Shown here: positions 49,672 through 58,817 of the stretch, one piece after another
Position numbering within the stretch: position 1 is the first letter of the stretch
How the letters are laid out: every line of letters starts with the position of its first letter
Source of the DNA: Roseivirga sp. BDSF3-8
GTDB lineage: Bacteria; Bacteroidota; Bacteroidia; Cytophagales; Cyclobacteriaceae
Length of the DNA: 64,000 nucleotides
Assembly (NCBI RefSeq): GCF_041449215.1
Contig: NZ_JBGNFV010000001.1
Coordinates: 3,799,001 to 3,863,000 of the forward strand
Reading direction: 5' to 3'
Notes under the pieces: generated by a model
Database searches by the model: none
What the model was told of the DNA's origin: nothing
What the model saw: only the letters and a program-made list of their open reading frames with translations
Translations under genes and position numbers: made by a program

Positions 49672-50634
49672 ATGAAAAAGAGCTACCTGCTATGTCTGCT
49701 GGCCACTGTATTCCTGGCCGTTTCCTGTTCGCGTGAGGAGATCCGCCCGGGTACTGATACTGAGTCTGCCAACGAAATTCCTTTCCATGACCGCTACACA
49801 CCTGAAGAGGAGGCTTTTCTTGGCGAAGACCCCAGCTTCAAATATGAGGGCATGCAAAACATGGCGACTGTCTACAAAGACAATAACCTGGCTATGGGTA
49901 ACCCAAGCGGCGCCAGTAGCAATTCCTACTACCATTGGAACTATCGTGTTACGAAGCCTGAGTATACCATGTCTTACCACCGTGACCGGGGCACGCCGAA
50001 CTGGGTAAGCTGGCACCTGAACAAGGCCTGGCTCGGAAGCGCCTCACGCTCCAGCGGCTTTTACCAGGACTATGCCCTGCCTTCGGGCTGGTACCGTGTG
50101 AGCAGTGGTGATTATACGAACTCGGGCTTCGACCGGGGTCATAACTGCCCGTCTGCTGACCGTACCTTGAGTTCGTCAGAAAACCAGTCTACCTTTTACA
50201 TGACCAATGTTATTCCCCAGTCTCCTGATGTGAATCAGCGTGCATGGGCCTCCCTGGAAAACTACTGCCGTGACCTCGTGCGCTATCAGAACAAGGAGCT
50301 GTATGTGATAATGGGAAGCTACGGTACGGGTGGTTCCGGCCGTAATGGCTATAAAAGCAAAATTGCGAACAATAAGGTGACTGTACCTAACCGGGTATGG
50401 AAGGTGATACTGGTATTGCCGGAAGGCTCCAGTGATCTGTCCCGTGTGACCACTTCTACTCGGGTGATTGCGGTGGACATGCCTAACAGCATGAATGTAA
50501 GCACCAACTGGGCGAGTTACCGTACTACGGTTGACTACATTGAGCAGGTAAGGGGCTATAATCTCTTCTCTCAACTACCCTCTTACGTCCAGTCGGCTAT
50601 AGAGAGCAAGGTGGATAACGGACCTACTTCCTAA
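49672..50634 (+). CDS. Secreted DNA/RNA non-specific endonuclease lipoprotein (NucA family)
   Basis: The 320-residue protein begins with a lipoprotein signal (lipobox LAVSC, Cys19), so it should be anchored to a membrane or the cell surface. The nuclease domain (~75-305) has the active-site motif DRGH (Asp154-His157) with the downstream Asn-rich helix (FYMTNVIPQSPDVNQRAWASLE; the Asn in NQRAW is the metal ligand). NucA-type enzymes cut DNA and RNA with a beta-beta-alpha metal fold and serve in nutrient scavenging or defence. The gene is monocistronic, with its own promoter candidate and terminator. Confidence 0.93.
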   Translation: MKKSYLLCLLATVFLAVSCSREEIRPGTDTESANEIPFHDRYTPEEEAFLGEDPSFKYEGMQNMATVYKDNNLAMGNPSGASSNSYYHWNYRVTKPEYTMSYHRDRGTPNWVSWHLNKAWLGSASRSSGFYQDYALPSGWYRVSSGDYTNSGFDRGHNCPSADRTLSSSENQSTFYMTNVIPQSPDVNQRAWASLENYCRDLVRYQNKELYVIMGSYGTGGSGRNGYKSKIANNKVTVPNRVWKVILVLPEGSSDLSRVTTSTRVIAVDMPNSMNVSTNWASYRTTVDYIEQVRGYNLFSQLPSYVQSAIESKVDNGPTS

Positions 50635-50784: not shown

Positions 50785-50809
50785 TGATATCGATTATGAA
50801 AATAGTCGG

Positions 50810-50905
50810 TTTATAGCGAAGAGGTGAGAGACAGGCTCTGTGACCCTCTGGCAACCTGGATTTACAAGGTGCCAAATCCTGCCCGTGTTTTTTGGGAGAT
50901 ATAAA
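50810..50905 (+). promoter_or_regulatory. SAM-I (S-box) type riboswitch upstream of metZ
   Basis: The stretch shows the S-box landmarks in order: GAGGTGAGAGACAGGC, CTCTGTGACCC, TCTGGCAACC, AAGGTGCCAAATCCTGCCC. A closing helix P1 can form between TTTATA at 50810-50815 and TATAAA at 50900-50905. SAM-I riboswitches sense S-adenosylmethionine and turn off methionine and cysteine genes, which fits the downstream metZ. No classic terminator follows directly; instead a small Cys-rich frame begins 10 bases downstream. Confidence 0.88.
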
Positions 50906-50915
50906 TTGACAAACA

Positions 50916-51017
50916 ATGACTATCAGAATTATCAACAACCAGGCTATCATACCATCTGCTACTTTCCGGCCCACTTCCCACTTGGCCGGTACCTGTTGTT
51001 GTTGCTGTTACTGTTAA
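50916..51017 (+). CDS. Putative cysteine-sensing leader peptide upstream of metZ
   Basis: An ATG frame of 33 codons follows the riboswitch and ends in five Cys codons, Tyr, Cys and TAA (residues 27-33 CCCCCYC). A run like this directly upstream of a sulfur-amino-acid gene is typical of ribosome-mediated attenuation. Inside the frame CCGGCC (50966-50971) can pair with GGCCGG (50984-50989), and GCCGG at 50985-50989 could pair instead with CCGGC at 51041-51045, giving alternative structures. Caution: the same bases read as a Leu run in the +2 frame from 50840, and there is no clear T-run terminator before metZ. Confidence 0.5.
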   Translation: MTIRIINNQAIIPSATFRPTSHLAGTCCCCCYC

Positions 51018-51139: not shown

Positions 51140-52345
51140 ATGAAAAAATCCTTCGAGCATTTTGAAACAAAGGCTGTACGCACTCAGTCCGAAAGAAGCC
51201 CGCACCGTGAGCATTCTGCACCGATATACATGACTTCCAGTTTTGTATTTGACGGGGCCGAGCATGCCCGGGCCATGTTCAATGATGAGGTGGAAGGGAA
51301 TATTTACACCCGCTTTTCTAATCCGAACAATACCGAATTTATCGAAAAGCTGTGCCTGCTGGAGGGCACGGAGGATGGTATTGCCACAGCCTCGGGTATG
51401 GCAGCGATGTTTTCCAGTATGGCTGCGCTGTTGCAATCCGGCGACCATATCCTTGCTTCTCGGTCCCTTTTCGGATCTACTCACCAGATACTCACGGGTA
51501 TTTTCCCTAAATGGGGTATTAGTCATACGTATGCTGATCTGAGTGATCCTGACTCGTGGGAGGGGCTAATTCAGAAAAATACGAAAATGATCTTTGTGGA
51601 AACGCCGAGTAACCCTGGGCTGGACCTGGTAGACCTGGAGTGGCTGGGTAAGCTGGCGAAAGCACACGATCTGATCCTGAATGTAGATAATTGCTTTGCA
51701 ACGCCTTACCTGCAAAACCCGGCCAGCTTTGGGGCTGACCTGGTTACGCACTCGGCGACTAAGTTTCTGGACGGACAGGGCCGCACGATAGCGGGTGCGG
51801 TACTGGGCAGAAAAGACCTGATACAGCAGGTGCGCTTCTTTGCACGCCATACGGGGCCTGCTTTGTCGCCCTTTAACGGGTGGACGCTGAGCAAAAGCCT
51901 GGAGACGCTGGCGGTGCGTATGGAAAAGCACTGTGACAATGCTCACCGCCTGGCGGAATACCTGGAGGGGCATAAGGAGCTGGAGTTTGTGAAATATCCG
52001 TTTCTAGCGAGCCACCCGCAGCAGGCTCTTGCCAAAAAACAGATGCGCTATGGGGGTGGGCTCATTACCTTCAATGTAAAGGGTGGGTATGACCGTGCCA
52101 GGCAGTTTTTGGATAATCTGTCTATGATCTCTCTTACGGCTAACCTGGGTGATACGCGTACCACGGCTACGCACCCGGCCAGCACCACTCACAGCAAATT
52201 AAGCCAGGAGGAGCAGGAGCGGGTGAATATTCTGCCAGGTCTGATCCGCATCAGTGTGGGGCTGGAAAATGTAAATGATATACTGGAAGATATTGAAAAT
52301 GCGCTGCGTGCTTCTAAGGTACACCTGGCCGCTAATCACACATGA
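51140..52345 (+). CDS. metZ: O-succinyl/O-acetylhomoserine sulfhydrylase (Cys/Met metabolism PLP enzyme)
   Basis: The 401-residue protein is a fold-type I PLP enzyme of the trans-sulfuration family. Landmarks: YTRFSNPN, ATASGMAAM, the phosphate-binding and Schiff-base region HSATKFLDGQG with Lys208 as PLP lysine, and ATHPASTTHSKLSQEE, which is typical of gamma-replacing enzymes. In the family MetZ makes homocysteine from acyl-homoserine and sulfide, so it uses the sulfide made by the sulfite reductase encoded next. It is preceded by the SAM riboswitch and the Cys-rich frame. MetZ, MetY and MetB are close relatives; the sulfhydrylase role is favoured by the context. Confidence 0.88.
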   Translation: MKKSFEHFETKAVRTQSERSPHREHSAPIYMTSSFVFDGAEHARAMFNDEVEGNIYTRFSNPNNTEFIEKLCLLEGTEDGIATASGMAAMFSSMAALLQSGDHILASRSLFGSTHQILTGIFPKWGISHTYADLSDPDSWEGLIQKNTKMIFVETPSNPGLDLVDLEWLGKLAKAHDLILNVDNCFATPYLQNPASFGADLVTHSATKFLDGQGRTIAGAVLGRKDLIQQVRFFARHTGPALSPFNGWTLSKSLETLAVRMEKHCDNAHRLAEYLEGHKELEFVKYPFLASHPQQALAKKQMRYGGGLITFNVKGGYDRARQFLDNLSMISLTANLGDTRTTATHPASTTHSKLSQEEQERVNILPGLIRISVGLENVNDILEDIENALRASKVHLAANHT

Positions 52346-52404
52346 TATTGATAACTAACACATACCGCCCTTTTACTTTATCTACAGTAGTAACCTGTAC
52401 TACA

Positions 52405-52470
52405 ATGGCTATGTTATGCTGTATCTGCTGCTGTATGAATGACTCCGGTCCGCCTGGTTGTAGTATGTAA
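52405..52470 (+). CDS. Cys-rich leader peptide of the sulfite reductase operon
   Basis: A 21-codon frame starts at ATG 52405 and stops at TAA 52468. It begins MAMLCCICCC and has six Cys codons (positions 5, 6, 8, 9, 10, 19). It ends 17 bases before a terminator hairpin that precedes the sulfite reductase gene. Bases 52447-52453 (GGTCCGC, inside the last third of the frame) are exactly complementary to 52494-52500 (GCGGACC) in the terminator, so a ribosome stalled at the Cys codons would leave an antiterminator pairing free. This is the logic of a cysteine attenuator. No Shine-Dalgarno site is seen, as is usual in this phylum. Confidence 0.65.
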   Translation: MAMLCCICCCMNDSGPPGCSM

Positions 52471-52487
52471 TCATTATACCCTGCTCA

Positions 52488-52519
52488 GCCTCCGCGGACC
52501 TTTCCCGGAGGCTTTTTTT
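52488..52519 (+). terminator. Attenuator terminator before sulfite reductase
   Basis: The stem GCCTCCG (52488-52494) / CGGAGGC (52506-52512) is followed by seven T. Its loop and arm overlap GCGGACC (52494-52500), which can pair instead with 52447-52453 in the leader frame; CTCCGG at 52443-52448 can also pair with CCGGAG at 52505-52510 in the 3' arm. It lies 23 bases before the sulfite reductase start, so it would work as a regulated stop, and it may also end metZ transcripts. Confidence 0.8.
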
Positions 52520-52541
52520 ATGCTTAATCCCGAATTAGACC

Positions 52542-54689
52542 ATGACACTTCAGAACATATCCTTAGAAAAAGATCTCTCTCGCGAAGCCAGAGAAGATAT
52601 TATAGAACTCGAAGAAAAGATCGCCCGCTTTAAACGTGGCGAGATTCCCGAGGAACGTTTCAAGGCCTTTCGTCTTACCCGTGGTGTTTACGGGCAGCGG
52701 CAGACGGGGGTGCAGATGTTTCGCATTAAATTCCCGTACGGTAAGGTAACGGCGGAACAGCTTATACGCGTGGCGGATATAAGCGACGAGTATACGAATG
52801 GAAACCTTCACCTGACGACGCGGCAAAACATCCAGCTCCATTATGTGCATGTGGAGGATACCCCTGCGATGTGGGCTAAACTGGAGGAAAAGGGTGTGAC
52901 TACCAGGGAAGCCTGTGGTAATACGGTACGCAATATTACAGGATCGCCCAGGGCGGGTATAGATCCGGATGAGCCGTTTAATGTGGCTCCTTACGTAGAG
53001 GCTGTATTTCAATACTTTCTTCGTAATGCTATTTGCCAGGACATGGGCCGTAAGATCAAGATGGCGTTCAGCGCGAGTGATAGGGACAGTGCTTATACGT
53101 ACTTCCATGATTTTGGCTTTATTCCGAAGGAGGACGGATCGGGGAACAGGGGGTTCAAGGTTGTGGTAGGAGGGGGCCTTGGTGCCCAGCCTTTTGTAGC
53201 GGCTACGGCGTATGAGTTTCTGCCTGCTGATGAGCTGATACCTTTCCTTGAAGCGGCCATTCGTGTATTCGATCGCTACGGGGAGCGTGAAAAGCGTATG
53301 AAGGCGCGGATGAAGTTTATGCTGGATGAGCGTAAGGGCTTAGGGCTGGAGCGTTTTCTGGAGTTGGTAGCGGAGGAAAGGAATGGCCTGCTGCATAAGG
53401 GTATTGCTATTGAGGGGGAGGAGGAGGTGCCTCCTCACAGGGACTTTAGGGCCACACCGGAGGATGGGGATGTTGGCGGCCGCCCTGACTTTTTAAGGTG
53501 GAAGGCTACTAACACTTTTGCCCAAAAGCAGGCGGGCTACTTTGGTGTACAGATCAAGCTGTTGCTGGGTAATCTCTCTTCTGGGGTGGCGCGGGAGCTG
53601 GCGGCCCTGGTGGGCACTGGGGTTGCGGCTGATGATATCCGCTTTACCATCAACCAGGGCATTCTGCTGAAGTACGTACGGGAGGAGAACCTGCCGTTTC
53701 TTTATGAGAAATTAAAGGCGCTGGGACTGGGTGATGACGGTTTTGGCGCGCTGCCGGACATCACTGCCTGCCCGGGCACGGACACGTGTAACCTGGGGGT
53801 TACGAACAGTACGGGGGTGGCGGTGGAGCTGGAAAAGGTGATCCGCGAGGAGTACCCGGACCTTATCAGCAATACGGATATTGACATTAAGATCAGTGGC
53901 TGTATGAACTCCTGCGGCCAGCATATGGCGGCTTCTATTGGCTTTCATGGTAGCTCTATAAAGGACGGTGCCCAAGTGATTCCAGCTCTGCAGGTGGTGC
54001 TTGGGGGTGGTGTGGCTCCGGATGGGAAGGGGTATATAGCGGAGAAAATAGTGAAGCTGCCGACGAAAAAGATCACGTATGCGCTGCGTGCGCTACTGGA
54101 TGATTATGAGGCGAATGGAAATGAGGGGGAGTACTTTAATGACTATGTGAGCCGCCAGGGCAAGAAGTACTTCTACTCTCTGCTGAAGCCGCTGGCGGAT
54201 GTGGCGAGCCTGCAGCCGTCTGACTATATCGACTGGGGGCATAATGAGGCTTTTATCCCTGAAATAGGTACGGGTGAGTGTGCGGGCATCAGTTATGATA
54301 TGGTGGCGACCATTATCAATGATGCACAGGAGCGTTATGACCTTGCGCTGAAGGCATTGAGCCGCGACCGCCTGCCGGATGCTGTCTACCAGGCGTACAG
54401 CGCCTTCGTAATCGGCGCCAAAGCGCTGTTACTCAGCAGGGATGTGCACTGCAACACGCATGATAAGATCATCAGTGACTTTGAAGAGCACTTTGATAGC
54501 GCTCAGTTTGGTCTGGCGGATGGCTTTGCGAGCCACGTGCTGCAGATCAGGTCACAGACCCCTACTGAAACGTTTGCGGCTAGGTATATCGACAGTGCCT
54601 CGCACTTTCTGAAAAAGGTGCGGGACTACCGCCAAAGCCAGCAAAATGAACAGGACAAAGAAGTTGTACAACACTATTATAAAGCCTAG
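52542..54689 (+). CDS. Siroheme [4Fe-4S] nitrite/sulfite reductase with C-terminal extension
   Basis: The 715-residue protein reduces sulfite to sulfide in assimilation. Two ferredoxin-like half-domains (GQRQTGVQMFRIKFPYG and YTNGNLHLTTRQNIQLH; KQAGYFGVQIKL) flank siroheme-binding repeats. The cluster ligands are Cys410-x5-Cys416 and Cys454-x3-Cys458 (GCMNSCGQH). Residues ~570-715, after the reductase core, form a helical HEPN-like extension (RYDLALKAL...; HDKIISDFEEHF) seen in Bacteroidota homologues. It is the first gene of a tight operon with siroheme-synthesis genes and cysH (spacing 2 bp, then overlaps). The electron donor is not encoded here. Confidence 0.93.
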   Translation: MTLQNISLEKDLSREAREDIIELEEKIARFKRGEIPEERFKAFRLTRGVYGQRQTGVQMFRIKFPYGKVTAEQLIRVADISDEYTNGNLHLTTRQNIQLHYVHVEDTPAMWAKLEEKGVTTREACGNTVRNITGSPRAGIDPDEPFNVAPYVEAVFQYFLRNAICQDMGRKIKMAFSASDRDSAYTYFHDFGFIPKEDGSGNRGFKVVVGGGLGAQPFVAATAYEFLPADELIPFLEAAIRVFDRYGEREKRMKARMKFMLDERKGLGLERFLELVAEERNGLLHKGIAIEGEEEVPPHRDFRATPEDGDVGGRPDFLRWKATNTFAQKQAGYFGVQIKLLLGNLSSGVARELAALVGTGVAADDIRFTINQGILLKYVREENLPFLYEKLKALGLGDDGFGALPDITACPGTDTCNLGVTNSTGVAVELEKVIREEYPDLISNTDIDIKISGCMNSCGQHMAASIGFHGSSIKDGAQVIPALQVVLGGGVAPDGKGYIAEKIVKLPTKKITYALRALLDDYEANGNEGEYFNDYVSRQGKKYFYSLLKPLADVASLQPSDYIDWGHNEAFIPEIGTGECAGISYDMVATIINDAQERYDLALKALSRDRLPDAVYQAYSAFVIGAKALLLSRDVHCNTHDKIISDFEEHFDSAQFGLADGFASHVLQIRSQTPTETFAARYIDSASHFLKKVRDYRQSQQNEQDKEVVQHYYKA

Positions 54690-54691
54690 AT

Positions 54692-55468
54692 ATGAAAGGA
54701 AGACTAACACTGGTAGGCGCGGGGCCGGGAGACCCTGAACTACTGACTATCAAGGGGGCTAAAGCCTTGGCCGATGCGGATGTGGTGTTGTACGACGCCC
54801 TGGTACAGCCTGAAATGCTTGCCTATACGAAATCCCGCGCGCTGAAGATTTTTGTGGGTAAGCGGGCGGGTGCTCATAGCGCGAGCCAGGATGATATAAA
54901 CCGCCTGATAGTGGACCACGCCTCACGGGGCAGGCATGTGGTAAGGCTGAAGGGGGGTGACCCTTTCGTGTTTGCCCGGGGCAAGGAGGAAATGGATTAC
55001 GCGGCGGCGTTTGGCATTGAGACGGATGTGGTGATAGGTATATCAAGCATTAATCTGCCGGGCCACTATGGCATACCTCTGACGTGCCGTGGCATCAATG
55101 AGAGCTTTTGGGTGGTGACTGCGACTACCCGCAGCGGGGAACTATCTAAGGATGTGTCACTGGCGGCGCAGTCTTCGGCGACGGCTGTATTCTTTATGGG
55201 GCTGCGTAAGGTGGAGGAGATAGCGGACTTGTATGCCCGCTACCAGCAGGAGGACTTGCCTGCGGCCATTATCAGCAGGGGTAGCCTGGCTGAGGGCCGG
55301 GTTTACACTGGGCTTGCGAGTAAGCTGGTGAGCCTGCGTGATGAAAACAGGATAGCGGCTCCGGCGCTGGTGATTGTGGGCAAGGCGGTGGGCTCGGCCT
55401 CTATCTGGCAGGAGGCGTCACAGCCGACTGAGTTGAAAAATGCGATTAAACGTATCAGTTATGCATAA
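54692..55468 (+). CDS. cobA: Uroporphyrinogen-III C-methyltransferase
   Basis: The 258-residue SAM-dependent methyltransferase has the SUMT hallmarks GAGPGDPELLTIKG at the N-terminus, VRLKGGDPFVFARGKEE, GIPLTCRG and FMGLRK. It converts uroporphyrinogen III to precorrin-2, the first step to siroheme, the cofactor of the sulfite reductase encoded 2 bp upstream. It overlaps the start of the next gene, indicating translational coupling. Confidence 0.95.
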   Translation: MKGRLTLVGAGPGDPELLTIKGAKALADADVVLYDALVQPEMLAYTKSRALKIFVGKRAGAHSASQDDINRLIVDHASRGRHVVRLKGGDPFVFARGKEEMDYAAAFGIETDVVIGISSINLPGHYGIPLTCRGINESFWVVTATTRSGELSKDVSLAAQSSATAVFFMGLRKVEEIADLYARYQQEDLPAAIISRGSLAEGRVYTGLASKLVSLRDENRIAAPALVIVGKAVGSASIWQEASQPTELKNAIKRISYA

Positions 55469-56072
55469 TCCGGGTAATACGTTGTTTCCTATCTTCTGTA
55501 AGATCGACCGCCTGAGGGTGCTGGTGGTAGGGGGAGGGCCTGTGGGGCTGGAAAAGGTGCAGGCTCTGCTGAAAAATAACCCGGAGGCACGTATCACTCT
55601 GGTGGCGATAGATATATGTGATGAGCTTTATGAGCTAGGGAAGGGCCATCCGACTATTGAATTACATAAACGGGCGTTTGTGCCTGAAGACCTGGAAGGG
55701 GCGGATCTGCTGATCCTTGCTACAGGCAGCCGGGAGACGAGTGAGGAGATAAGGGAAATGGCGTGGGAGCGTCATTTGCTTACGAATGTGGCGGATACGC
55801 CTGATCTGTGTGATTTTTACCTGGGGTCTACAGTGAAAAAGGGCGACCTTAAAATAGGTATCAGTACGAATGGAAAGTCTCCGACCTTTGCCAAGCGCTT
55901 TCGCGAGCTACTGGAAGAATCATTGCCTGAGGACATTGATGCGTTGCTGCAGAATCTGCACGAGGTGCGTAACATGATGACGGGAGACTTTCAGGAGAAG
56001 GTAGAAAAGCTGAATGCACTCACTGCTGACCTTACTGCTAACCGTTCTCAACCTAAAGCTTACGAAAGATGA
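55461..56072 (+). CDS. Precorrin-2 dehydrogenase / sirohydrochlorin ferrochelatase (CysG N-terminal/Met8-like)
   Basis: About 203 residues with an NAD-binding Rossmann motif VLVVGGGPVGLEKVQALL and NVADTPDLCDFYLGS and GISTNGKSPTFAKRFRELLE as in the CysG N-terminal and Met8 families. It oxidises precorrin-2 and may insert iron, completing siroheme. I prefer the ATG at 55461, which overlaps the preceding stop by 8 bases; the ATG at 55440 in the same frame would add seven residues. Confidence 0.92.
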   Translation: MHNPGNTLFPIFCKIDRLRVLVVGGGPVGLEKVQALLKNNPEARITLVAIDICDELYELGKGHPTIELHKRAFVPEDLEGADLLILATGSRETSEEIREMAWERHLLTNVADTPDLCDFYLGSTVKKGDLKIGISTNGKSPTFAKRFRELLEESLPEDIDALLQNLHEVRNMMTGDFQEKVEKLNALTADLTANRSQPKAYER

Positions 56073-57063: not shown

Positions 57064-57425
57064 TATAGCCGTCAAGCTAGGGATGTAAATAGCTAACAAT
57101 AGCCCATGAGCAATTCCCGGTCAGTCAGCTGACTGACGGGGATGGTTCGCTAACTAGCGAATAAGGGGCGGGACTGGCATTAGAATTGGCTGAAACCGGC
57201 TGCTTTAAATAGCATTCTGCCAGGACCTCCCGGATGCGGGCCCAGCGAAAGTCGGACCACCGAAAGTCGGACCACCGAAAGTCGGGCCACCGAAAGTCGG
57301 GCCACCGAAAGTCGGACCTCTCCTATGAGGAGGGGAATTATTCGTGCCTACCGCTGCAGAGCACCACATTTTTATAAGCAAATCATTCAAAATTAGCAAA
57401 ATAGAGCCTTAGCTTGAGGGCTATG
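57064..57425 (+). mobile_element. MITE-like element, copy 1
   Basis: A 362-bp unit is bounded by inverted repeats TATAGCCGTCAAGCTAGGG (57064-57082) and CCTTAGCTTGAGGGCTATG (57407-57425). Inside are the conserved blocks GCATTCTGCCAGGACCTCC, the 15-bp tandem array, GGGGAATTATTCGTGCCTA and ATTTTTATAAGCAAAT, all repeated in other copies downstream. It encodes no transposase. The same blocks recur at least five more times in this window, so it is a mobile or formerly mobile non-coding family. Confidence 0.75.
57247..57321 (+). repeat. 15-bp tandem repeat array in copy 1
   Basis: GAAAGTCGG recurs at 57247, 57262, 57277, 57292 and 57307 with an exact 15-bp period (unit GAAAGTCGGACCACC with A/G changes). 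Read on the minus strand the unit spells Gly-Gly-Pro-Thr-Phe, but I see no evidence that it is translated. Confidence 0.9.
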
Positions 57426-58370: not shown

Positions 58371-58817
58371 CATAGCTGTCAAGTTAAGGATGTAAATGGC
58401 TTGAAAATAGCACATTATTATTTCAAAAAGGCAATAGCACTTTTTGGGCCGGGGTCGGGTACAGCATTAGAAGTATCCGTAACTGGCTGCTTTAAATAGC
58501 ATTCTGCCAGTACCTCCCGGATGCGGGCCCAGCGAAAGTCGGACCTCCCGGATGCGGGCCCAGCGAGAGTCGGACCTCCGAAAGTCGGACCACCGAAAGT
58601 CGGACCTCCCGGATGCGGGCCCAGCGAAAGTCGGACCACCGAAAGTCGGACCTCCGAGAGTCGGACCTCCCTGATTAGAAATACGCATTCGCGTTTTCTA
58701 ATCGGTCCCCTTGCCTAATAGGAGGTGAATTATTCGTGCCTAACGCTGCAGGGTGCCATATTTTTAAAAGCAAATTATTCATAATTAGGAAAATAGAGCC
58801 TTAGCTTGACGGCTATG
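58371..58817 (+). mobile_element. MITE-like element, copy 2
   Basis: A 447-bp copy is bounded by CATAGCTGTCAAGTTAAGG (58371-58389) and CCTTAGCTTGACGGCTATG (58799-58817). It shares with copy 1 the blocks GGATGTAAAT, GCATTCTGCCAGTACCTCC, the GAAAGTCGG array, GGTGAATTATTCGTGCCTA and TTTTTAAAAGCAAATTATTC. It is longer because its internal array is expanded and partly built of a larger unit, and it has an extra palindromic ATACGCATTCGCG segment. Confidence 0.78.
58533..58670 (+). repeat. Compound tandem repeat array in copy 2
   Basis: About seven GA(A/G)AGTCGG units occur, with 15-bp spacing in places and about 30-bp spacing where the unit is extended by CTCCCGGATGCGGGCCCAGC. The larger unit occurs three times. 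The array differs from that of copy 1, so array length varies between copies. Confidence 0.85.

What the first reader, a model, noticed from the sequence alone, without database searches (positions are those of the whole stretch)
52405..52519. Cysteine attenuator: Cys-codon leader peptide plus switchable terminator before sulfite reductase
A 21-codon frame with six Cys codons precedes a terminator with seven T. GGTCCGC inside the frame exactly complements GCGGACC in the terminator, giving mutually exclusive structures that depend on where the ribosome stalls. Cys leader peptides are reported in Actinobacteria; I know of no described Bacteroidota case.
Basis: partly seen in the sequence, partly recalled or inferred. 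Interest (0 to 1): 0.8.

Follow-up and report, generated by a model that had tools for sequence, protein, structure and literature searches.

The report
Cysteine-sensing leader switch before sulfite reductase
Just before its sulfite reductase gene this Bacteroidota bacterium carries a tiny cysteine-rich reading frame and a switchable stop signal, found again in many relatives, that very probably lets it make cysteine-building enzymes only when cysteine runs short; a second such frame sits right behind a methionine-pathway RNA switch in the same operon.

Summary
Confirmed and extended. The Cys frame, terminator, seven T and GGTCCGC/GCGGACC match are present. With a ribosome on Cys codons 5-8 the RNA folds best as an antiterminator; at the stop codon only the terminator forms. 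A short ORF with clustered Cys precedes sir in 74 of 102 nonredundant loci (shuffled 1.5%), 63 of 74 with a terminator. Spacer-terminator pairing beats shuffles in 40 of 71 units, true partners beat re-paired ones in all 20000 permutations, and Cys codons are kept in phase 131 times and lost 10. Best reading: a ribosome-mediated cysteine attenuator. Corrections: the leader probably starts at 52342, overlapping the stop of a metZ-like gene, so it lies inside an operon. The genome also has tandem Cys attenuators before a cysteine synthase. My searches showed no Bacteroidota precedent. No expression data.

The parts
50808..50907 (+). SAM-I riboswitch aptamer (RF00162)
   Evidence: 72.4 bits, gathering 44.4. 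18 of 18 relative loci scanned have one at the corresponding place; those loci were picked because one search had shown a Cys frame there
50916..51017 (+). leader 1: poly-Cys uORF MTIRIINNQAIIPSATFRPTSHLAGTCCCCCYC*, ATG 8 nt after the aptamer, Cys run abutting the stop codon
   Evidence: same arrangement in 42 of 121 SAM riboswitches of this and related genomes
51140..52345 (+). metZ-like O-succinylhomoserine sulfhydrylase family gene (PF01053)
   Evidence: best NCBIfam model scores below its equivalog cut-off
   Evidence: such an overlap in 7 of 27 loci with metZ upstream, the window included
52417..52434 (+). regulatory Cys codons CCICCC (a further Cys codon at 52459-52461)
52447..52453 (+). 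antiterminator 5' arm GGTCCGC (with CTCC just before it pairing GGAG of the terminator 3' arm)
52487..52519 (+). intrinsic terminator: stem 52487-52513, T7; GCGGACC 52494-52500 is the antiterminator 3' partner
52542..54689 (+). sir, nitrite/sulfite reductase family hemoprotein (PF01077, PF03460)
   Evidence: NCBIfam models below their cut-offs
54692..55468 (+). cobA, uroporphyrinogen-III C-methyltransferase (siroheme)
   Evidence: above cut-off
55440..56072 (+). CysG N-terminal-type siroheme synthase domain
   Evidence: above cut-off of TIGR01470
56069..56728 (+). cysH, phosphoadenylyl-sulfate reductase
   Evidence: above cut-off of NF002537

Best explanation
A ribosome-mediated (classical) transcription attenuator that senses Cys-tRNA charging, placed inside a sulfur operon between metZ and sir. 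The leader is translated, probably by coupling to metZ through the ATGA overlap. If cysteine is plentiful the ribosome reaches the stop codon, covers GGTCCGC, and the terminator at 52487-52519 forms, so sir-cobA-cysG-cysH are not transcribed. If charged Cys-tRNA is scarce the ribosome halts on the CCICCC codons, leaving GGTCCGC outside its footprint. GGTCCGC then pairs with GCGGACC (and CTCC with GGAG), the terminator cannot form, and the sulfate assimilation genes are made. Shown here: the sequence parts, their conservation, the competing folds and their spacing. Inferred: translation of the leader, stalling, and the response to cysteine.
For: Exclusive folds: with the assumed ribosome edge at 52441 or before (Cys codons 5, 6, 8) the complete-transcript minimum is the antiterminator (-27.2 kcal/mol); with a ribosome at the stop codon only the terminator forms, -18.9. 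Conservation: leaders in 74 of 102 loci, 63 of 74 with terminator, terminators in 0.6% of 870 shuffled regions, stop-to-terminator distance median 26 nt. Antiterminator complementarity p<0.05 in 40 of 71 units, mean z -1.9; true partners better than re-paired in all of 20000 permutations, also after thinning to 53 units, of which 29 have p<0.05. The 5' arm starts a median of 14 nt after the last Cys codon of the run. Cys codons kept in phase. The same device, in tandem, precedes a cysM-like cysteine synthase in this genome; it is present in 7 of 8 close orthologs (own included) and 0 of 22 distant homologs, and 7 of 9 of those units have p<0.05. The downstream genes reduce sulfate/sulfite.
Against: 31 of 71 units show no significant antiterminator by my test (listed). 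In 38% of the 65 stronger units the 5' arm begins less than 12 nt after the last Cys codon, so only stalls earlier in the run would free it whole. 28 of 102 loci lack a leader by the >=4-Cys rule and 11 of 74 leader loci lack a detected terminator. In the wider class sample 8 of 29 loci have it. For stalls at Cys codons 9 and 10 the finished transcript slightly prefers the terminator, so the switch there must rely on the antiterminator forming first. The lone Cys codon at 52459 lies past the antiterminator arm. No promoter, transcript, translation or cysteine-response data.
Confidence: 0.86

Rival explanations
1. The leader ORF stalls ribosomes for another reason (for example an arrest peptide, or a cysteine-oxidation or metal signal sensed by the nascent peptide), and the terminator switch follows that signal rather than Cys-tRNA charging.
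For: A variant leader with a conserved CWFWCC motif exists before sir in L096, L097, L100 and L106, 4 of 348 loci held; it looks more sequence-specific than a codon counter.
Against: In the window's type the peptide drifts around the Cys codons; number and spacing of Cys vary widely while Cys is kept. The genes behind such leaders are for sulfite reduction and cysteine synthesis.
Confidence: 0.08
2. The frame encodes a small Cys-rich protein with a job of its own (metal or redox binding), unrelated to control.
For: Many Cys in a short ORF.
Against: Length, start and non-Cys residues vary between relatives; clusters range from 4 to 10 Cys in 10 codons; the 3' part of the ORF often carries the antiterminator arm; 71 of 87 leader ORFs are followed by a terminator, at 20-38 nt from the stop in the 10th-90th percentile.
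Confidence: 0.03
3. An ordinary terminator of metZ with a chance Cys frame beside it.
For: The terminator does follow metZ in the window.
Against: Leaders with terminators occur before sir also where the listed upstream neighbour is not metZ (for example L033, L036, L048, with two units in tandem) and before cysteine synthase; chance rates 1.5% and 0.6%.
Confidence: 0.01

Closest known systems
Classical amino-acid attenuators (trp/his/leu type of Proteobacteria; recalled)
   Same: Short ORF with a run of codons for the pathway's end product, antiterminator arm just beyond the stalled ribosome, intrinsic terminator before the structural genes.
   Different: Senses Cys; sits inside an operon and is probably coupled to the upstream gene; in 8 of 74 leader loci two complete units in tandem.
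Cys leader peptides of Actinobacteria (Seliverstov et al. 2005, PMC1262725, passages read; Canestrari et al. 2020, seen only as a cited reference)
   Same: Poly-Cys short ORF upstream of cys genes.
   Different: Those have Cys runs near the stop codon and, in Mycobacterium, no conserved terminator hairpin; leader 2 here has both a terminator and an antiterminator. Leader 1 here (Cys run at the stop, no intrinsic terminator found) is the closer match.
uORFC-8-2 motif before cysS in Rhodobacterales (PMC8632094, passages read)
   Same: uORF with tandem Cys codons plus a terminator-like stem, proposed Cys-tRNA attenuation.
   Different: Two conserved Cys codons, cysS only, Alphaproteobacteria; here longer Cys clusters before sir and cysM-like genes in Bacteroidota.
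SAM-I riboswitch (RF00162), and the dual-input SAM-I of Xanthomonas that binds uncharged initiator tRNA (PMC7270179, abstract read)
   Same: SAM aptamer combined with a second amino-acid supply signal.
   Different: Here the proposed second signal is read by a translated poly-Cys ORF starting 5-15 nt after the aptamer, not by direct tRNA binding.

Membership tests
Ribosome-mediated transcription attenuator (leader 2) | Short ORF with clustered codons of the regulated amino acid | tested here: met
Ribosome-mediated transcription attenuator (leader 2) | Intrinsic terminator between leader and structural genes | tested here: met
   window; relatives: 63 of 74 leader loci
Ribosome-mediated transcription attenuator (leader 2) | Mutually exclusive antiterminator, freed by stalling at the regulatory codons and masked at the stop codon | tested here: met
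   window; relatives: 40 of 71 units significant
Ribosome-mediated transcription attenuator (leader 2) | Downstream genes belong to the pathway of that amino acid | tested here: met
Ribosome-mediated transcription attenuator (leader 2) | Leader is translated and read-through rises on cysteine limitation | not testable with these tools
   needs experiment
Actinobacterial Cys leader | Cys run next to the stop codon and no terminator hairpin | tested here: not met
   leader 2 has a terminator, and 11 codons lie between its Cys run and the stop, one of them Cys; leader 1 fits both
uORFC-8-2 | Located before cysS with two tandem Cys codons | tested here: not met
   gene is sir and Cys pattern is CCICCC
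T-box | T-box aptamer | tested here: not met
   the only Rfam match at gathering score in the window is SAM
SAM-I riboswitch (50808-50907) | Covariance model match over cut-off, full length | tested here: met
   model 1-108 of 108
SAM-I riboswitch with intrinsic-terminator platform | Terminator after the aptamer | tested here: inconclusive
   my scan found none after the window's aptamer (row L141), but it found one in only 5 of 52 riboswitches of the other class too, so it is a weak test

The most novel reading that the evidence does not exclude
In Cytophagales a class of SAM-I riboswitches has a translated poly-Cys ORF as its output stage: SAM binding to a weak A/U-rich P1 stem controls initiation at an ATG mostly 6-11 nt downstream, and charged Cys-tRNA then decides whether the ribosome stalls on the Cys run that abuts the stop codon, probably shielding a Rho entry region. 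The homocysteine synthase genes metY and metZ would thus be switched by SAM and cysteine together in one leader. In the metZ-sir operon this two-input switch is followed in series by an internal cysteine attenuator.
Probability: 0.6. Interest if true: 0.82.

Novelty: new variant of a known kind. Interest (0 to 1): 0.66.

Why it matters
If true, it gives Bacteroidota a cysteine control system with testable parts: classical attenuators before sir and a cysteine synthase, and SAM riboswitches that feed a poly-Cys leader before homocysteine synthases. The second arrangement would be a natural two-signal RNA switch joining a riboswitch to ribosome stalling. Both can be tested with simple reporters, and the poly-Cys signature lets the regulon be read from genomes. 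It would also show internal, translation-coupled attenuation within an operon in a phylum where translation mostly starts without Shine-Dalgarno pairing (recalled).

Tried and rejected
T-box, other riboswitch or other Rfam element at 52405-52519: none at gathering score. Chance Cys frame: rejected by shuffles and reverse complements (an earlier version with other 300-nt windows of the same loci, 2.3%, is). A genome-wide look for further Cys runs (four Cys codons in a row, 28 hits): 25 lie in ORFs of 100 codons or more on one strand or the other; the other 3 are leader 1 (two overlapping hits) and the cysteine synthase leader. Intrinsic terminator after leader 1: my scan reports one for 3 of 65 class-A frames (two of them inside the frame), but also for only 5 of 52 class-B riboswitches, so the scan does not separate the classes. 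Rho or translational coupling is proposed for leader 1; the excess of C over G in the 90 nt after the uORF stop is larger than in the 90 nt after class-B aptamers (40 vs 52 loci, p 0.003), which compares unlike positions and is weak support only. Substitutions by codon position in the leaders are near even (51, 65, 76 at positions 1, 2, 3), so only the Cys codons, not the peptide, argue for translation.

Errors of mine: searches had nine whole-genome loci in the wrong orientation; one search corrected this and is the count used. In one search the codon labelled Cys18 is codon 19. The >=4-Cys threshold was chosen; one search gives other thresholds. Class A and B riboswitches were defined after looking at the aptamer ends; the shuffle control does not depend on that.

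Rows dropped before counts: 7 duplicate loci and L065 (3 nt of upstream sequence); L009. L009 is still in the 74, 87 and 11.

Full report
Observation. The stretch 52405-52470 encodes MAMLCCICCCMNDSGPPGCSM*. It is followed by a terminator stem at 52487-52513 with seven T. GGTCCGC at 52447-52453 is the exact complement of GCGGACC at 52494-52500. None of 200 shuffles of 52396-52520 folds as well, z -3.79.

Setting. The genes around it are a metZ-like O-succinylhomoserine sulfhydrylase family gene (51140-52345, below its equivalog cut-off), sir (52542-54689), cobA, a CysG N-terminal domain gene and cysH. The best named match to sir is Nafulsella turpanensis, Bacteroidota, Cytophagales (67% identity), from which I infer the genome's place. 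The leader frame runs on upstream in phase to an ATG at 52342 that overlaps the metZ stop as ATGA. In 27 loci with metZ just upstream (the window included), 7 show the same 4-base overlap and 23 have the first in-frame start codon within -4 to +30 nt of the metZ stop. The leader is therefore most likely 42 codons with 7 Cys, coupled to metZ, and the attenuator lies inside an operon.

Competing folds in the window. I assumed the ribosome's leading edge 15 nt past the start of the A-site codon. Stalls at Cys codons 5, 6 and 8 give a complete-transcript minimum of -27.2 kcal/mol that is the antiterminator: GGTCCGC with GCGGACC plus an inner stem, and CTCC with GGAG of the terminator's 3' arm. At codons 9 and 10 the antiterminator (-23.6 and -23.4) forms before the terminator's 3' arm exists, but the finished transcript slightly prefers the terminator. 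With the ribosome at the late Cys codon or the stop codon only the terminator forms (-18.9). With no ribosome the terminator also forms, beside a leader hairpin.

Conservation. I took the 80 best loci of 130 found with the sir protein and 30 loci from a search of 59 genomes, own included, 33 of which have a sir match. After merging 7 duplicates and leaving out one locus without upstream sequence, 102 remained. A short ORF with at least 4 Cys in 10 codons lies within 450 nt upstream of sir in 74 of 102, against 1.5% of 3060 shuffles and 1 of 102 reverse complements. One of the 74, L009, is a false hit (a ferredoxin gene piece and a GTG frame without terminator). Of the 74, 63 have a terminator after a leader; shuffled regions have one in 0.6% of 870. 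The distance from leader stop to terminator is narrow, median 26 nt. Eight loci carry two complete leader-terminator units in tandem. In a wider sample of the class, 198 genomes of which 52 have a match, I examined the 29 new loci returned: 8 qualify and several more have 3 Cys with a terminator. So the device is common near the window's lineage, from which the first set is drawn, and patchy beyond it.

Pairing. For 71 leader-terminator units I asked whether the RNA between the stalled ribosome and the terminator pairs with the terminator's 5' arm and loop. It does so beyond shuffles in 40 of 71 (p<0.05), mean z -1.9; 31 of 71 do not reach significance. Swapping partners among loci never reached the mean energy of the true partners in 20000 permutations, with all 71 units or after thinning to 53 dissimilar ones, 29 of which have p<0.05. 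The pairing has therefore co-evolved within loci. The 5' arm begins a median of 14 nt after the last Cys codon. Among the 65 stronger units, 62% begin at least 12 nt after it and 85% overlap the stretch covered by a ribosome at the stop codon. In 22 alignments of related leaders (overlapping pairs, not independent), Cys codons were kept in phase 131 times, 19 of them with a synonymous change, and lost 10 times; other codons drift without clear constraint. That is what a codon-counting leader predicts.

The same genome uses the device elsewhere. A scan for four Cys codons in a row led to a place outside the window, G000:C1 near 4,987,500, with two leader-terminator units in tandem before a cysM-like cysteine synthase (below its equivalog cut-off). 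Among 30 homologs fetched, the 8 with 54-100% identity, own included, carry such leaders with terminators in 7 cases; the 22 with 35-39% identity carry none. Seven of the 9 units there have p<0.05 for antiterminator pairing, one of them only just.

A second Cys leader in the window. The window's SAM riboswitch (50808-50907) is followed after 8 nt by an ATG opening a 33-codon frame that ends CCCCCYC* at 51017, upstream of metZ. I picked 20 relative loci in which one search had shown a Cys frame upstream of metZ and scanned 18 of them: all 18 have a SAM riboswitch before that frame. In at least 11 of the 18 a 4Fe-4S ferredoxin gene sits between this frame and metZ. A less selected survey took all 121 SAM riboswitches reported for 52 of 59 genomes, own included. 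Of these, 42 are followed by an ATG 4-16 nt after the aptamer that opens a frame of at most 60 codons with at least 4 Cys and the last Cys within 5 codons of its stop; shuffles give 0.23% of 3450 for class A and 0 of 2600 for class B. Class A means an aptamer end TATAAATT or similar: 65 of 69 have an ATG in that place and 40 of 69 the Cys frame; in class B it is 5 of 52 and 2 of 52; shuffles have such an ATG in about 21%. By a crude gene recogniser and a slightly different rule, one search also gives 42 riboswitches with a Cys frame: 24 before metY, 7 before the ferredoxin, 2 before metZ/B-type genes and 9 before unrecognised genes. Those without include 8 before metY, 12 before metZ/B-type genes, 11 of 11 before metH-type genes, and 38 unrecognised; 6 before metY have 3 Cys. 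In the window's own genome 2 of 3 SAM riboswitches have the frame. In the wider class sample 2 of 29 riboswitches examined have the class-A end, by eye. My scan reports an intrinsic terminator for 3 of 65 class-A frames, but also for only 5 of 52 class-B riboswitches. The median distance from the Cys frame to the next gene is 131 nt (39 of 40 frames with a gene found).

Mechanism. Leader 2 (the finding): ribosome-mediated attenuation by Cys-tRNA supply, as set out above. Leader 1: I infer that SAM binding closes a weak stem just upstream of the ATG and hinders its use, and that ribosomes stalled on the Cys run at the stop codon keep Rho or a fold from blocking expression; the result would be expression when both SAM and cysteine are low. 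The first step is suggested by the fixed spacing; the second is conjecture, with only weak base-composition support.

What is known. Poly-Cys leaders without terminators are described in Actinobacteria (PMC1262725, passages; Canestrari 2020 seen only as a cited title, and not held). A Cys uORF with terminator is described before cysS in Rhodobacterales (PMC8632094, passages). A transcriptome paper on Flavobacterium psychrophilum reports clues for leader-peptide attenuation before amino-acid operons; the passages I saw do not name cysteine for these (PMC9723704). sORFs reminiscent of leader peptides are mentioned for B. thetaiotaomicron (PMC7366714, passages). My ten literature searches listed no paper that I recognised as describing a Bacteroidota cysteine attenuator or a SAM riboswitch joined to a poly-Cys frame. 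The library lacks most subscription journals, supplements were not searched, and a likely survey (Lopatovskaya 2010) was seen only in a reference list. So 'first in Bacteroidota' is unrefuted, not proven.

Verdict. Leader 2 is a new member of a known kind, apparently in a new phylum, with tandem and operon-internal forms. Leader 1 joined to a SAM riboswitch is a new variant. Everything rests on sequence; no expression data were available.

Noticed in passing
   Followed up: yes
L132 about 1350-1790 (own genome C1 near 4987500) and L319: Two Cys leader-terminator units in tandem before a cysM-like cysteine synthase, which is followed by a gene with a weak (below cut-off) match to a desampylase family.
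   Followed up: yes
L096 1292, L097 1289, L100 1299, L106 1367: A different Cys leader before sir with a conserved CWFWCC motif, perhaps a sequence-specific stalling peptide; found in 4 of 348 loci held.
   Followed up: partly
L148, L191, L198, L214, L215, L223 and others: SAM riboswitches with the same aptamer end and ATG spacing but uORFs with few or no Cys (24 of 65 have fewer than 4); what these frames sense is unknown.
   Followed up: no
window 57242-57318 and 58512-58675: Arrays of 15-base repeats (unit like CCACCGAAAGTCGGA) downstream of the sulfur genes.
   Followed up: no
window 49672-50634: ORF with a DRGH motif, which recalls non-specific DNA/RNA endonucleases (recalled); no NCBIfam family matched; Pfam was not tried.
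   Followed up: no
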